Shown here: positions 54,732 through 60,258 of the stretch, one piece after another | Layout of the letters: every line of letters starts with the position of its first letter | Numbering within the stretch: position 1 is the stretch's first letter | Origin: Bacteroidales bacterium | GTDB lineage: Bacteria > Bacteroidota > Bacteroidia > Bacteroidales > P3 | Assembly (NCBI GenBank): GCA_024681475.1 | Contig: JAILAT010000013.1 | Coordinates: forward strand, 1 to 64,000 | Direction of reading: 5' to 3' | Length of the DNA: 64,000 nucleotides | Notes under the pieces: generated by a model | Seen by the model: the letters and a program-made list of their open reading frames with translations, nothing else | Database searches by the model: none | What the model was told of the DNA's origin: nothing | Made by a program: the position numbers and the translations under genes

Positions 54732-55769
54732 TTACCTGTAGTATTGTTTGTACCATTCTGCGAATCTGCGGAGACCCTCACGAAGCGGTATTCTGGGTGT
54801 AAAACCGAAGTCCTTCTCAAGGGCAGAAGAATCAGCGTAGGTTACGGGTACATCTCCTGCTTGCATAGGCACTAACTCTTTGTGTGCTTCGAAGTCGTAA
54901 TCCTGTGGCAGCACACCAGCACGGAGCAATTCTTCTTGCAGGATGTTGATGAAATCCAACAGGTTCTCAGGCTGTCCACCACCGATATTATAGACGGCGT
55001 AGGGTGCCAGAGGTAGGCCATCCTCACCGTTGCGCTTTTCGGGAGCTTTGGCCATCACGCGAACAATGCCTTCCACAATGTCGTCCACGTAGGTGAAGTC
55101 GCGGCGGCAGTTGCCGTAATTGTAGATCTGGATGGTCTGGCCTTTCAGCAACTTGTTGGTGAAGCCGAAGTAGGCCATATCGGGCCTTCCGGCAGGGCCA
55201 TATACGGTAAAAAAGCGTAATCCAGTAGATGGAATATTATACAACTTCGAGTAGCAATGTGCAAACAGCTCGTTGCTCTTCTTGGTGGCGGCATACAGTG
55301 ACACAGGGTTATCTACCCTATCCTCCACTGCAAACGGCACCTTCTTGTTGCCACCATACACGCTCGATGACGATGCATACACAAGATGTTCCACGGGGTT
55401 GTGGCGGCAGGCTTCGAGGATGTTATAGAACCCTATCACGTTGCTCAGGATGTACGCATCGGGGTTTTCAATTGAGTAGCGAACGCCAGCCTGGGCTGCT
55501 AAGTTCACTACGATGTTGAACTTATATTCAGCAAAGAGGCTGTCAACAAGTTCCTTGTCGGCAATGTCGCCTTTCACAAACTTATAGTTTATCCCTTTGG
55601 GAACCATCGTTTCAAGTTCCTTCAGGCGATATTCCTTTAAGGAAACATCGTAATAGGCATTCATATTGTCGATGTTCACAATAGTTGCGCCTTTCACATC
55701 CGCAAACAAGCGCTTTATCAGGTTCGAGCCGATGAAACCGGCACCACCTGTCACAAGAATGTTCTTCAT
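54732..55769 (-). CDS. NAD-dependent epimerase, UDP-glucuronate 4-epimerase-like
   Basis: 345 residues from ATG 55769; the open frame extends 38 codons upstream into the neighbouring gene. The SDR motif VTGGAGFIGSNL is at about 6-17, SSSSVYG supplies Ser, and YAATKKSNE is the catalytic Tyr-Lys pair. RFFTVYGPAGRPDMA is typical of UDP-glucuronate epimerases. It would make UDP-galacturonate for surface polysaccharide. It is followed by the stump of a second copy and a terminator. Confidence 0.88.
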   Translation of the reverse strand: MKNILVTGGAGFIGSNLIKRLFADVKGATIVNIDNMNAYYDVSLKEYRLKELETMVPKGINYKFVKGDIADKELVDSLFAEYKFNIVVNLAAQAGVRYSIENPDAYILSNVIGFYNILEACRHNPVEHLVYASSSSVYGGNKKVPFAVEDRVDNPVSLYAATKKSNELFAHCYSKLYNIPSTGLRFFTVYGPAGRPDMAYFGFTNKLLKGQTIQIYNYGNCRRDFTYVDDIVEGIVRVMAKAPEKRNGEDGLPLAPYAVYNIGGGQPENLLDFINILQEELLRAGVLPQDYDFEAHKELVPMQAGDVPVTYADSSALEKDFGFTPRIPLREGLRRFAEWYKQYYR

Positions 55770-55810: not shown

Positions 55811-56806
55811 TTATCTGAAATACATTGAAATAGGCGAAAATGTTTCCTTCAGCATATTCCATTCCGTAACTTTTTTCAACCAACCATCTATTGGCTCTAC
55901 CTTCTCAAATGAAACATAGTCAAAAGCATCTTGGTAAAAGACATTCTCTACATATATTTCAACATCTACACCAAACAGCTCTAATCCATTTAACATGCAC
56001 AATAATGATTGAGGAACATTGGTTAAGTTGGGCGTAACCAAAAGTTTTGTTTTATGACAATGCCACTGCTTATACGATTGCAATTCGGCAAGTTCTGTTG
56101 ACAGAATCAGCAAACTGTTTTTCTTTTTGGCATTACTAAACTTTTCGGTAATCGCATCATAAATAATACGGTCTAATTCATCATCAGGATATTCTTCTTG
56201 TGGTGTTCCCTTAATGAGCCTTTCCAAGCGTTCTCTTTCATCAACCACCTCTTTCTGCTTCATCCTATATTCAGACGACATTTTGCGCAAGTAAAGAACT
56301 TCTGCTTGTTGCCTACGACCCTTTTCAATAGACCTGCTGAATACTATCCTCTTCATCACATGTAAATCATCCAAAGAAAGTACTCTTATAACCTCATCCA
56401 TTGATTTAATTAACTGCAAGCATAATCCAGATGTTTTTTCATTCAATATCCTCAATTCAAAATCCCTATATATCTGTGGTTTCCCATAACGCCAGCCCAC
56501 GAGAAAACCTACTTTTGCAACTTCGGTTTCTTCGTTAACATACAATAAAATAATGGGTATTCTGTTGCTTCTTTCAGAAAGATCCAGCCCATTTATTTTG
56601 GCAATTAGAGAACCCATGTTCAAAGGCACATCCTTTTGCCTTTTTACCTCCACTCCGAATTTTAATTCCGTGCCATCATTATAAGAAACCAACAAATCAT
56701 AAAGCTGATTTGTTGAACCTGATATTGAAATATTGCCAAAATACCTGTATAAGATAGTCGCGGCTATCTGTTCAGCACGCAGGTCTCTACTAACATCATT
56801 ATTCAT
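55811..56806 (-). CDS. Putative PD-(D/E)XK nuclease-like protein, member 4 of the four-gene block
   Basis: 331 residues. The N-terminal 60 residues carry Glu in RAEQIAAT (residue 12), Asp in YDLLV (37) and GVEVKR (Glu53, Lys55), the spacing of a PD-(D/E)XK nuclease active site and close to that of the next gene. The rest is charged and helical (coiled-coil-like at about 165-215), with no named domain. It overlaps the preceding gene by 4 nt. A nuclease function is inferred from the motif alone; a protein-binding role is possible. Confidence 0.6.
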   Translation of the reverse strand: MNNDVSRDLRAEQIAATILYRYFGNISISGSTNQLYDLLVSYNDGTELKFGVEVKRQKDVPLNMGSLIAKINGLDLSERSNRIPIILLYVNEETEVAKVGFLVGWRYGKPQIYRDFELRILNEKTSGLCLQLIKSMDEVIRVLSLDDLHVMKRIVFSRSIEKGRRQQAEVLYLRKMSSEYRMKQKEVVDERERLERLIKGTPQEEYPDDELDRIIYDAITEKFSNAKKKNSLLILSTELAELQSYKQWHCHKTKLLVTPNLTNVPQSLLCMLNGLELFGVDVEIYVENVFYQDAFDYVSFEKVEPIDGWLKKVTEWNMLKETFSPISMYFR

Positions 56807-57285
56807 AAACTGCTCTTGAACTTTTTCTTGTACGATTTTGTTTTAGAGTTTTCCCAATATGTAATCACATCCTGTTTTAATAGTTCCAAAGTTTTCTTCG
56901 AAGTTGCTTTCTTACTTTGTTTTAGGACATGTTTGATTGGCATACTGTTCAAAGATTTCTTATCGCCAAACGCAGAACATAGATAAACCGTCTCGCTATT
57001 GTTATCAACCCCTGCAACATATGTTGGCATCGGTCGTTTTAGCAATTCGCCATATTTTCTTTTAGATACTTTAACCTTCAAATTCCCACTGCTGTCATAG
57101 CCTTTTTCTGTACTTTTCACTTGTACCATGAAGAAATAAGACTTTTTCGAATCTATAATCTCCAAAAGAAAGTCCACTATAGGAGCCTTTTCACCAAGAA
57201 AATACACATTGAATAGATAATGTTCTGTTATCCTTGAATGGAAAATGCTTTCACCACGGTCTCCTATTGCATTATTGTCAGCCAT
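56803..57285 (-). CDS. DUF4365-like protein, PD-(D/E)XK fold, member 3 of the four-gene block
   Basis: 160 residues from ATG 57285 (MADNNAIGDRGES); 15 codons of the open frame upstream overlap the end of the DUF1848 gene. Glu12 (GDRGESIFH), Asp38 (APIVDFL) and Gln55/Lys57 (MVQVKST) match the DUF4365 arrangement, a restriction-endonuclease-like fold in which Gln often replaces the Glu. The end is Lys-rich. It lies 14 bp from the DUF1848 gene and overlaps the next gene (ATGA). Confidence 0.68.
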   Translation of the reverse strand: MADNNAIGDRGESIFHSRITEHYLFNVYFLGEKAPIVDFLLEIIDSKKSYFFMVQVKSTEKGYDSSGNLKVKVSKRKYGELLKRPMPTYVAGVDNNSETVYLCSAFGDKKSLNSMPIKHVLKQSKKATSKKTLELLKQDVITYWENSKTKSYKKKFKSSL

Positions 57286-57299
57286 AAACCTTTCCCGTT

Positions 57300-58652
57300 T
57301 TAAATCATAAACTCGTTTATCTTCAACCAATCATTATGGAACTTTTTGCGGAGATAGTGCTGTATCTCGTGTACATATACCAAATGTTCTTTCTTAACCA
57401 ACTCTTTGAACGTCTTTTTCCCTTCATAGTTCCGCTCAAAAGACTCCATATAATATGAATAATCAGTGCGATGAACAGGTGTTGGTTCACCAGGGAACAC
57501 AATGGAAGCCACAACTATAGGGTCATAATAAATCCAGCGGTCTTCAACACCATCCATCACCACTGGTATTAATTCATTCAATGTCAACACTTGTTCCACA
57601 TCCTCTAGCACTATCTTATCACCATTAATAGACGCGATTCTATATAGGTTAATACCATGTCCTAAAACATCACAACTTTTCTTATAATTTTCAGGATGTT
57701 TTAATTGCACAATATCACCTTTTGTAAATGGCTCTGGTATTTTGATAAATGTGAATAGTTTTCTTTCCTTAACCACATCCTTCTCGCCAATCTCGCCTAT
57801 TAGCAATGGTGAATTTGGATTGTGTATGGAACGATTGCGCGCCACAACTCCCTCCCTAAAATTGGCGTAACAATACTTACAGCCATGGGCACAAGTATTG
57901 TATTCACCAATGTCTATACTCTGTACACATCCACATTCCTTGCGCTGATTTGGATCTTTGCTCACCACCAACTTTACGTTAAGTAAATCCTCTATCAAGG
58001 CATTGTCAATACACTTACCGTGTTTCACACCAACCGACTCCAATGCAATTTCCTCGGCACAGGTTTGTATCTTCATCCCATGCTTCATTGCAATAACGCA
58101 CATCTTGGCGGCCAGTTCTAACATTTCTTTGAGTGATGGCTCACGAGCATCAGTGTCTTTAAGATTATTTTGAGTCTTTTTATAAAGGTCAACAAAGCTA
58201 ATGACACAAGTATTGGTATAACCCTCAAGCCGTTTCGCTATTTCCTCAAAATAACGTAGATGATAATCAATGCCCATCTGTTCGGTAAGCAAAATAGGGT
58301 CATACCGCCATATAACTCTTTTCGGCCCTATGATTTCTGATAGTTGTCTGAACGTATTTATTACACCATCTTTCTTAGGCACATCTACTTCCAATCCTTT
58401 GTCGTATGCGTTTATTGTGTATTGGAAGTAATACATATAACCTTTCAACTCATCGAGTCGCGACAGCATCGGTTGAGGATTCTTACTCCAAAACACCATA
58501 CAATCTATTACCTCAGGCGAAAGCACAATCTTGCTCACCTGATGAATATTCAGCGGGTTACGCACATACACAAACCCTTCCCTCAGACGGTTGAAAAACC
58601 ACTCTGAGTAAAAAGCTGGTATATCAGTTCGACGGCTAACACTGAGAATCAT
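57300..58652 (-). CDS. DUF1848 protein with C-terminal extra domain, member 2 of the four-gene block
   Basis: 450 residues. The DUF1848 part (1 to about 275) opens SVSRRTDIPAFYSEWF, has FWSKNPQPML and RYDPILL, and ends with CGCVQSIDIGEYNTC and CAHGCKYCYANF, a CxxxCxxC set typical of radical SAM Fe-S sites though at the domain's end. About 175 residues then follow with FTKGDIVQLKHPENY and a long basic tail, beyond the usual DUF1848 length. The reaction is unknown. It is 14 bp after the methyltransferase-like gene and 14 bp before the DUF4365-like one. Confidence 0.75.
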   Translation of the reverse strand: MILSVSRRTDIPAFYSEWFFNRLREGFVYVRNPLNIHQVSKIVLSPEVIDCMVFWSKNPQPMLSRLDELKGYMYYFQYTINAYDKGLEVDVPKKDGVINTFRQLSEIIGPKRVIWRYDPILLTEQMGIDYHLRYFEEIAKRLEGYTNTCVISFVDLYKKTQNNLKDTDAREPSLKEMLELAAKMCVIAMKHGMKIQTCAEEIALESVGVKHGKCIDNALIEDLLNVKLVVSKDPNQRKECGCVQSIDIGEYNTCAHGCKYCYANFREGVVARNRSIHNPNSPLLIGEIGEKDVVKERKLFTFIKIPEPFTKGDIVQLKHPENYKKSCDVLGHGINLYRIASINGDKIVLEDVEQVLTLNELIPVVMDGVEDRWIYYDPIVVASIVFPGEPTPVHRTDYSYYMESFERNYEGKKTFKELVKKEHLVYVHEIQHYLRKKFHNDWLKINEFMI

Positions 58653-58666
58653 AAATAATACAAAGG

Positions 58667-59548
58667 TTATTGAAACAAAGCAAGCATAAGGATGCTACCA
58701 CATGTGGGGAAAGGACTAAAAGTTTGCACAGATTTTTCGACTATAGGAAAAGTCAAATCTTCCGAACCTTTATATTTGCCATATATAGGCTGCCCTGGCT
58801 TGGGCGTGGCAAAATGTCCACGGCCTATCTTTTCATTTATGTTTTTATTGAGTTGGAGTTTCCTTGCCAATTCTTCCATAAGTACATATCCTGTTTTTTC
58901 AGCATAGCATAGATACACGTCATTGATAGCAATTGATGATATTCTTTTCTGCTCGCATAATGCTACCACATTATCAATGAAAGTGGAACAAATATCAGGA
59001 GATTTATATCTAGCCAAATCCGATAACATATAATTTAAAATCAGAATATCCGCATGATCGTCGCAATTTGCCATGTATTTAAAAAAATCTTCCAAATAGA
59101 ATTGAATATCCCTATTAGGAAACAAACCTTTCTCAAAGTCATTTATTTGCTTCCATAAAGGATTAAGATCGAATCCCTTGAAATGGATTAACTGGCTACC
59201 AAACTGATTAACGACCCCAAATAACTCCGTACAAGGTCCACAACCCACAGAGTATATGTTTATTTCATTGGGGAATTGAACACTATGTTTTAATAAACCT
59301 AGAACTTGATCCATCTCAGAAGCATAACGATGGCCATGTTTCAATACATAGTTATAAGTAATTCGATCACATTGATATTTCAAATCCTCATTGCGATAAT
59401 AATGTATTTTGTTCAAACACGCATAACAATTTTGACCATCCATGCTTGGACAGGGATGAATACATTGTCCATAAGGACAATTCTGGCATACAACTGTATT
59501 TTTGAATTGTTGTTCACAGTAATTTATGTATGCTGAAAACTCTTTCAT
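58667..59548 (-). CDS. Cys-rich SAM-methyltransferase-like protein, member 1 of the four-gene block
   Basis: 293 residues. Seven cysteines in the first 45 residues (including CQNCPYGQC, CP and CYAC) suggest a metal- or Fe-S-binding module. A Rossmann-type motif I IYSVGCGPCTELF (about 98-110) and GFDLNP (125-130) with DILILNYMLSDL follow, as in class I S-adenosylmethionine methyltransferases. The substrate is unknown; the Cys module hints at nucleic acid. It is the first gene of the block and begins 114 bp after the small gene at 59663. Confidence 0.65.
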   Translation of the reverse strand: MKEFSAYINYCEQQFKNTVVCQNCPYGQCIHPCPSMDGQNCYACLNKIHYYRNEDLKYQCDRITYNYVLKHGHRYASEMDQVLGLLKHSVQFPNEINIYSVGCGPCTELFGVVNQFGSQLIHFKGFDLNPLWKQINDFEKGLFPNRDIQFYLEDFFKYMANCDDHADILILNYMLSDLARYKSPDICSTFIDNVVALCEQKRISSIAINDVYLCYAEKTGYVLMEELARKLQLNKNINEKIGRGHFATPKPGQPIYGKYKGSEDLTFPIVEKSVQTFSPFPTCGSILMLALFQ

Positions 59549-59859: not shown

Positions 59860-60258
59860 TTACAAAGTCAGAACATCCACTGGGCTCTGCGGCTCATACG
59901 GGCCGTCCTTGCACTCAATAATCACCGAGCCTGATTCCAAGGCTTTCACAGTATGCCACTGGCCTTGGGGGACGTTCAATGCCACAATGGGGCCATTCGG
60001 TGACAGTTCTATCCTCTCAGTACAGATTCTCTCCAGCTCATCATAGAACTCCCAAACCAATCTACCTCGCAGACACACTACCGTTTCTGAGGTCTTCTGA
60101 TGACGATGTATAGGCAATGGGCTGCCTGGTTCTATGGCGTTGAGCATACGCTGGGATTGGTCTTCTGCTGAGTTGCGAAGATCCATATTCATGCGTAAGC
60201 GGGGAGAGGCTTTAGCTTGAGCCGTGAGGTTATCTAATATCTTATTATCAATAATCAT
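59860..60258 (-). CDS. WbuC family cupin-fold metalloprotein
   Basis: 132 residues. The single cupin domain has PLPIHRHQKTSETVVCLRG (metal-binding His pair and Glu, about 50-68) and GQWHTVKALESG (about 98-110). WbuC-type proteins are encoded in O-antigen loci, as here, but their exact step is not settled. The gene lies between the terminator that follows the SGNH gene and the small gene at 59663. Confidence 0.86.
   Translation of the reverse strand: MIIDNKILDNLTAQAKASPRLRMNMDLRNSAEDQSQRMLNAIEPGSPLPIHRHQKTSETVVCLRGRLVWEFYDELERICTERIELSPNGPIVALNVPQGQWHTVKALESGSVIIECKDGPYEPQSPVDVLTL

What the first reader, a model, noticed from the sequence alone, without database searches (positions are those of the whole stretch)
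55811..59548. Candidate undescribed four-gene system: methyltransferase-like, DUF1848 fusion and two PD-(D/E)XK-fold proteins
Four minus-strand genes are packed with gaps of 14 bp, 14 bp and a 4-nt overlap, in AT-rich DNA placed inside a surface-polysaccharide region. Together they combine a Cys-rich SAM-methyltransferase-like protein, a DUF1848 protein with a CxxxCxxC motif and extra domain, and two proteins with E12/D37-38/(Q or E)xK55-57 spacing of the restriction-endonuclease fold. A modification-like enzyme beside nuclease-fold proteins is a common plan for defence systems, but I know of no described system with this set. The function is inference.
Basis: partly seen in the sequence, partly recalled or inferred. 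Interest (0 to 1): 0.72.

Follow-up and report, generated by a model that had tools for sequence, protein, structure and literature searches.

The report
Two gene pairs, not one system
A run of four bacterial genes that looked like one new antiviral system is better read as two separate gene pairs lying side by side: a radical-SAM-like enzyme with a cysteine-rich methyltransferase-like partner, and a likely nucleic-acid-cutting enzyme with its own partner; relatives of both pairs also occur near known phage-defence genes, but no function has been tested.

The parts
58667..59548 (-). MT: 293-aa Cys-rich class I methyltransferase-fold protein (N-terminal C11, C21, C24, C29, C41, C44, C60; motif I SVGCGPCTE)
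57300..58652 (-). DUF1848 protein, 450 aa: radical-SAM-like core (about residues 1-290) with CxxxCxxC 254/258/261 plus invariant C198, C214, C240, C242
57300..57731 (-). C-terminal extension domain of the DUF1848 protein (about residues 308-450), also found alone and at the N terminus of N6-adenine methylase-family proteins
56803..57285 (-). N3: 160-aa DUF4365 (PD-(D/E)XK) nuclease-family protein, E12/D38/Q55xK57
   Evidence: (PF14280 E 2.2e-6)
55811..56806 (-). N4: 331-aa PF27006-family protein; N-terminal part distantly DUF4365-like with a degenerate active site
59860..60258 (-). Flanking cupin-like gene (132 aa; cupin label is my own reading)
54732..55769 (-). Flanking sugar-nucleotide epimerase-like gene (label is my own reading); 81% identical to the one that, with a cupin homologue, brackets the same segment in genome G069

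Best explanation
The stretch is variable, defence-type cargo in a polysaccharide locus and consists of two independent two-gene modules. (A) MT-DUF1848: the MT, a Cys-rich, METTL17-like methyltransferase-fold protein that probably carries a metal or Fe-S centre, selects and binds a structured nucleic acid (RNA most likely); the adjoining DUF1848 protein, a radical-SAM-type enzyme with a likely second Fe-S cluster, does the chemistry (modification or repair) on that target, in response to or as protection from phage or effector damage. The MT is the exchangeable, fast-evolving recognition part. (B) N3-N4: N3 is a DUF4365 nuclease; N4, a distant and catalytically degenerate relative, is its regulator or sensor; on a trigger N3 cleaves nucleic acid. 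Shown: gene order, conservation of each pair, absence of N3 from the other MT-bearing genomes searched, MT fold (model), conservation of the cysteines and nuclease residues, defence genes near several relatives, clade mismatch of the MT. Inferred: co-transcription, the target, the chemistry, the trigger, the defence role.
For: Pair A: 18 of 21 loci found through the MT have DUF1848 directly downstream; spacing -29 to +16 nt, -4 in 9 of 18 measured rows. C198, C214, C240 and C242 are invariant in 34 of 34 DUF1848 rows, the CxxxCxxC in 33 of 33 with sequence. Weak radical-SAM profile hits recur (PA0069 family in 9 of 12). MT fold; METTL17 is a [4Fe-4S] MTase-fold protein that binds mitoribosomal RNA (passages). 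Pair B: same order and 4-nt overlap in L071 at 36% and 26% identity; 7 longest-contig lengths besides the own contig are shared by the N3 and N4 homologue lists, none by the MT list (read by eye). The QxK pair was put forward as the DUF4365 active site in TmuRE (Q62, K64; passages). Setting: Qat directly upstream in L049, a type II MTase directly upstream in L052, TPR family upstream and HNH nearby in L053, type IIG two genes away in L074, AbiH downstream in L055, PDC-S31 upstream in L054; CBASS and methylase-S-PtuAB on either side of N3-N4 in L071. Same cupin-epimerase segment with other cargo in G069. MT clade mismatch: AU p 5.5e-35.
Against: No function is tested anywhere. The defence association rests on few, chosen neighbours and a small, unmatched control (2 of 10 neighbours of unpaired DUF1848 also hit PADLOC). 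Several pairs lie among what reads like housekeeping genes (L032/L048, L044). DUF1848 is often found without an MT: 20 genus places and 5 plasmid or phage-type loci had none near, so its chemistry does not need the MT in general. The METTL17 match is 8% identical, and METTL17's cluster cysteines (333-404) are not where the MT's are (11-60); in distant MTs the cysteine pattern is only partly kept. Unrelated Pfam families hit single DUF1848 members at E as low as 0.0055, better than the radical SAM hits. The circular-permutation reading gains no alignment score beyond the cysteine motif. DUF1848 and N4 folds were not modelled. Beyond the window, N3-N4 adjacency was read directly in one locus only; surveys of Bacteroidales genomes gave almost no other hits. 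In both the window and L071, N3-N4 lies beside a protein with the same extension domain, which could mean a link between the modules.
Confidence: 0.55

Rival explanations
1. One four-gene defence system: a modification enzyme and a DUF1848 partner mark self, and two nucleases attack non-self.
For: Tight packing on one strand; in both the window and L071 the N3-N4 pair lies next to a protein with the shared extension domain.
Against: N3 not found in 15 of 15 other MT-bearing genomes; the other four long-form DUF1848 loci (L049-L052) have no N3/N4 match in the fetched stretch; N4 active site not conserved.
Confidence: 0.1
2. MT-DUF1848 is not a defence system but a nucleic-acid or translation repair/maintenance pair (or a metabolite- or peptide-modifying pair) that is merely mobile and lands in defence islands and polysaccharide loci.
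For: Weak matches of DUF1848 to PA0069-type radical SAM families; DUF1848 beside Sir2 and protein-ADP-ribose hydrolase genes on a Roseburia plasmid and near AlkB on a Planktothrix plasmid; housekeeping-like contexts; METTL17-like fold.
Against: Defence-family neighbours in 6 of the 10 paired loci whose chosen neighbours were scanned; PADLOC lists both families.
Confidence: 0.35
3. N3-N4 is an added effector of neighbouring systems (for example of CBASS in L071) rather than a stand-alone module.
For: N3 follows the CBASS JAB gene within about 35 nt in L071, all on one strand.
Against: In the window no PADLOC-recognised system was found among the four genes beyond the MT and DUF1848 profiles, and no CBASS gene lies beside N3-N4 by my reading of the ORFs.
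Confidence: 0.2

Closest known systems
PADLOC families C3a159 (methyl transferase) and RTasDUF1848
   Same: The MT (E 3e-10) and DUF1848 (E 1.2e-55) match these profiles; the MT of L053 matches C3a159 too
   Different: PADLOC lists them singly; a pattern scan showed no reverse-transcriptase-like gene in the loci scanned (not a profile search). What the labels stand for (RT-associated; perhaps type III CRISPR-associated) is recalled: the papers were not held
METTL17/Rsm22, [4Fe-4S] methyltransferase-fold mitoribosome assembly factors
   Different: 8% identity; no Rsm22 Pfam hit listed at E up to 1; conserved cysteines at another place; bacterial, paired with DUF1848
Radical SAM enzymes of the PA0069/SplB-like group
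   Same: CxxxCxxC and flanking YNTCxHGCxYCYAN
   Different: The motif lies at the C-terminal end of the domain rather than the N-terminal end; four additional invariant cysteines
DUF4365 nuclease of short-Argonaute (SPARDA-type) systems
   Same: N3 has the QxK active-site pair and the E and D residues
   Different: Only DUF4365 was matched in N3 and no Argonaute is evident beside it; the partner is N4 (PF27006)
Qat, Septu (PtuAB), CBASS, RADAR
   Same: Occur beside homologues of these genes or of the flanking cupin
   Different: None of their profiles matched the four genes

Membership tests
Radical SAM superfamily (DUF1848) | CxxxCxxC for the [4Fe-4S] cluster | tested here: met
   Invariant in 33 of 33 rows with sequence; cluster binding itself not testable
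Radical SAM superfamily (DUF1848) | TIM-barrel-type radical SAM fold | not tested
   Structure job for A4 was never accepted
Radical SAM superfamily (DUF1848) | Sequence-profile match beyond the cysteine motif | tested here: inconclusive
   Radical_SAM Pfam in 2 of 12 members, best E 0.029, with unrelated families at E 0.0055-0.03; PA0069 in 9 of 12, best E 0.017; hhalign extension gives no score gain
METTL17/Rsm22 | MTase fold over the whole chain | tested here: met
METTL17/Rsm22 | Rsm22 family sequence profile | tested here: not met
   Only DUF7217 (E 0.26) listed among Pfam hits up to E 1
METTL17/Rsm22 | Four cluster cysteines equivalent to human C333, C339, C347, C404 | tested here: not met
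   Conserved MT cysteines lie at 11-60; METTL17 positions
DUF4365 / PD-(D/E)XK nuclease (N3) | Conserved E, D and (E/Q)xK | tested here: met
   E12, D38, Q55, K57 in 24 of 24 rows; PF14280 28.2 bits, cut-off 24.3
PD-(D/E)XK nuclease (N4) | Conserved catalytic acids and K | tested here: not met
   E53 11/28, E12 9/28, K55 25/28, D37 26/28
PD-(D/E)XK nuclease (N4) | Nuclease fold | tested here: inconclusive
   hhalign to N3 profile probability 52, E 1.5e-4; no model
Single four-gene defence system | Conserved co-occurrence of the four genes | tested here: not met
   N3 in 0 of 15 other MT-bearing genomes (draft genomes, N4 not sought there)
DRT (reverse-transcriptase) systems | Reverse transcriptase gene beside the pair | tested here: inconclusive
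   Only a pattern scan for [YF]xDD in ORFs of 200 aa or more
PADLOC C3a159 | Profile match | tested here: met
   E 3e-10, residues 49-165 of 293

The most novel reading that the evidence does not exclude
MT-DUF1848 is an unrecognised two-gene phage-defence system of Bacteroidota and Bacillota: a bacterial, Fe-S-dependent, METTL17-like protein docks on a structured RNA (or DNA) target and a circularly permuted radical SAM enzyme with a second cluster carries out radical chemistry on it; the MT part is exchanged between systems to change the target.
Probability: 0.25. Interest if true: 0.78.

Novelty: new variant of a known kind. Interest (0 to 1): 0.48.

Why it matters
If the pair acts together, it couples a METTL17-type methyltransferase fold, known from mitoribosome assembly, to a radical-SAM-like family that carries only a 'domain of unknown function' name in Pfam, in a mobile bacterial setting that can be tested. 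It gives DUF1848 a partner in one branch of the family, two likely cluster sites and a place to start. It also shows that a tight four-gene run can be two modules side by side, a caution for operon-based discovery of defence systems.

Tried and rejected
Rejected: a single four-gene system; restriction-modification logic for the MT (best fold match METTL17, then a mix of RNA, protein, lipid and small-molecule MTases; I saw no DNA methylase among the 50 rows shown, which does not exclude one); N4 as an active PD-(D/E)XK nuclease. Led nowhere: MT in viral contigs and plasmids; N3 and N4 in plasmids and phages; N3 in viral contigs (N4 gave one contig); PDB sequence searches (nothing or weak rows such as threonyl-tRNA synthetase, ApcC, Bcs3 and adiponectin, taken as chance); a stand-alone copy of the extension domain in phages; N3 in 319 genomes of the family of G514. 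Papers: 'DUF1848' 0 papers; 'DUF4365' 10 papers (one read in passages); radical SAM with photolyase or defence terms and Rsm22/anti-phage terms showed no paper on this pair in the rows listed (one search listed 5 of 988). The library holds open-licence papers only, so this does not show absence from print.

Weak or dropped rows: L077 (E 7e-4, no DUF1848 near) is probably another methyltransferase; L058 and L076 end at contig ends; L056 has MT and DUF1848 in one ORF lacking the DUF1848 N terminus; the L047 MT is split into two ORFs; L082 was found through DUF1848 and has only a weak MT match (28.6 bits), so it is left out of the 18 of 21 but is in the spacing table; L057 was left out of the profile (cut by the contig end); P0089 in A2 looks chimeric and lowers the N4 counts slightly; L045 and L046 are near copies; L003, L032 and L048 are the same place in G076; L004-L009 are the same places as L033-L038. 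In one search the epimerase and a small-ORF query were translated out of frame; one search repeats the epimerase comparison in frame, and the small-ORF hit is dropped.
Full report
Observation. The four genes are as described: MT 58667-59548, DUF1848 57300-58652, N3 56803-57285 (ATG start) and N4 55811-56806, minus strand, spaced 14 nt, 14 nt and -4 nt. GC is 0.37-0.40, but this low GC runs on through the adjacent polysaccharide genes. Pfam finds DUF1848 (E 2.2e-112) in gene 2 and DUF4365 (E 2.2e-6) in gene 3; nothing significant in genes 1 and 4. PADLOC profiles match gene 1 (C3a159 methyl transferase, E 3e-10) and gene 2 (RTasDUF1848, E 1.2e-55), but not genes 3 and 4. Homologues of gene 4 carry the precomputed Pfam label PF27006 in 61 of 61 proteins, the window's own included.

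Pair A. A scan of genome contigs with an MT-family alignment gave 15 loci; in 14 a DUF1848 match lies directly downstream, in one of them (L056) within the same ORF. The fifteenth (L058) stops at a contig end. Of four further genomes found in the order (393 searched), two have the pair, one hit (L076) lies at a contig end and one weak hit (L077) has no DUF1848. The one phage-collection record with an MT match has the pair. With the window this makes 18 of 21 loci; L045 and L046 are near copies. Spacing was measured in 18 rows (the window, 16 of these loci and L082, which was found through DUF1848): -29 to +16 nt, -4 in 9. The reverse does not hold: 20 DUF1848 places in the window's genus (1.5 kb flanks) and five plasmid, phage or viral loci had no MT match near; in the 25 of 120 genus genomes with a DUF1848 or extension match an MT lies beside it only in the own genome and G076. 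In the tree the unpaired genus rows fall in two fully supported groups on long branches (1.46 and 1.87), the paired rows lie outside both, and the tool warns about long branches.

Pair B. N3 was sought in 15 other genomes carrying the MT: 0 of 15 (drafts, and without a positive control in that call, though the N3 protein search does find its own genome). In 119 genus genomes N3 and N4 each occur only in the own genome. The N3 and N4 homologue lists share seven longest-contig lengths besides the own contig (12516, 3421, 18508, 4314, 10312, 12147, 2523), and neither shares one with the MT list besides the own (read by eye, a proxy). In one genome of the Prevotella group of L047 (L071, G710) N3 and N4 lie in the same order with the same 4-nt overlap at 36% and 26% identity, between a CBASS operon (patatin effector, cyclase, E1-E2, JAB) and an N6-methylase / specificity / PtuA / PtuB set. 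N4 was otherwise found only as partial matches in G303 and G828 and on one viral contig.

An unexpected thread is the extension domain at the C terminus of the window's DUF1848 protein. It is present in five of the paired DUF1848 proteins (window, L049-L052), which form one group (99/82). The same domain forms single 146-147-aa proteins (L039-L041) and the N terminus of the methylase-family protein in L071 and its 61%-identical counterpart in L042, where the same gene set (53-63% identity) follows RdrA/RdrB-like (RADAR) genes. Its role is unknown; a shared docking or sensing domain is my inference.

Gene 2. Seven cysteines are invariant across 34 DUF1848 rows, paired and unpaired: C198, C214, C240, C242 (34 of 34) and C254, C258, C261 (33 of 33 with sequence). 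The last three form CxxxCxxC; the other four could bind a second cluster (inference). The region around the motif gives weak but recurring hits to radical SAM families (PA0069 in 9 of 12 members, mob_pairB in 6 of 12); in Pfam, Radical_SAM reaches E 0.029 in 2 of 12 while unrelated families reach 0.0055 in single members. Against two PA0069-like proteins from one genome (L119, L120, below that family's cut-off) the profile aligns at E 2.9e-6, but over 25 motif columns only; when the profile is rotated or doubled the alignment runs on through the junction over 128 columns without extra score (reversed control E 0.22). A circular permutation is thus suggested, not shown.

Partner exchange. By DUF1848 the window groups with L049-L052. 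By MT it does not: its MT groups with P0002, P0004, P0005, P0010 and P0022, nearer to L044 and L045 than to L049-L052, and one clade of the five is rejected (AU p 5.5e-35). I chose that group after noticing the identity mismatch, long branches are present elsewhere in the tree, and the DUF1848 partners of the P rows are unknown, so duplication and loss would also fit. MT identities to the window are 29-36% for L049-L052 while DUF1848 identities are 63-74%. This fits an exchangeable, fast-evolving recognition part.

Setting. I scanned chosen neighbours of 10 paired loci with PADLOC. Clear neighbours in six: Qat A, C, D (weak B) upstream in L049, with PDC-S27; a type II MTase in L052; TPR, HNH and PDC-S41 families in L053 (with a TIR match, E 2.6e-10); type IIG in L074; AbiH in L055; PDC-S31 in L054. 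L051 gave a WYL hit and, like L045, mixed hits of an AlbA-type-looking gene (best pAgo model, E about 1e-12 to 1e-13); L050 gave only a weak hit and the one gene scanned in L075 none. The other paired loci were not scanned. As a small control, 2 of 10 neighbours of unpaired DUF1848 genes matched (a mad1 hit and a restriction enzyme). The window's flanking cupin was followed into four relatives. In G069 a cupin homologue (73% identity) and an 81%-identical epimerase bracket the same segment, which holds other genes, one with a TIR-effector match (E 8e-11) and one with a weak PDC-S02 match; on the other side of the cupin lie QatC, QatD, PtuA and PtuB. G115 has a like arrangement on that other side (read from ORFs, not scanned), G025 a PDC-S27 gene there, and in G076 I noticed none. 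In G042 the RADAR and methylase-PtuAB genes lie on the same side of a cupin homologue as the window's four genes. So this locus swaps cargo, part of it defence-type.

Verdict. Most likely the stretch holds a conserved MT-DUF1848 modification or repair pair and a conserved nuclease pair, N3-N4. Both functions remain inference. Sources: only passages were read of PMC10810196, PMC11046306, PMC12375894 and PMC9892005; names such as cupin and epimerase for unscanned genes are my own reading.

Noticed in passing
L071 5660-7420, L042 7145-8875, L039 8686-9126, L040 8535-8978, L041 8801-9241: A domain of about 140 aa ending in YVHE(V/I)Q(H/R)xL occurs at the C terminus of DUF1848, at the N terminus of methylase-family proteins in methylase-S-PtuA-PtuB sets, and as single proteins.
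   Followed up: partly
L042 4212-14115: RdrA/RdrB-like (RADAR) genes directly before an extension-domain methylase-S-PtuA-PtuB set, in a polysaccharide region beside a cupin homologue.
   Followed up: partly
L117 703-14128, L115 1-5821, L116 3858-5219: Near the flanking cupin, relatives carry Qat and PtuAB-like genes or a PDC-S27 gene: a candidate defence hotspot inside the polysaccharide locus.
   Followed up: partly
L078 6322-8942: Roseburia plasmid: DUF1848 directly after a protein-ADP-ribose hydrolase and a Sir2 gene, with no MT match in the 17-kb stretch.
   Followed up: no
L079 8001-10547: Planktothrix plasmid: DUF1848 near an AlkB dioxygenase gene, no MT match.
   Followed up: no
L053 7431-8855: The Natronincola MT carries an N-terminal extension of about 185 aa and follows a TPR/cold-shock family gene.
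   Followed up: no
L056 4562-5989: MT and DUF1848 lie in one ORF that lacks about the first 109 residues of DUF1848: a deletion fusion or decay.
   Followed up: no
L081 1-2569: A phage-labelled scaffold carries MT-DUF1848 next to what reads like a transposase fragment (own reading).
   Followed up: no
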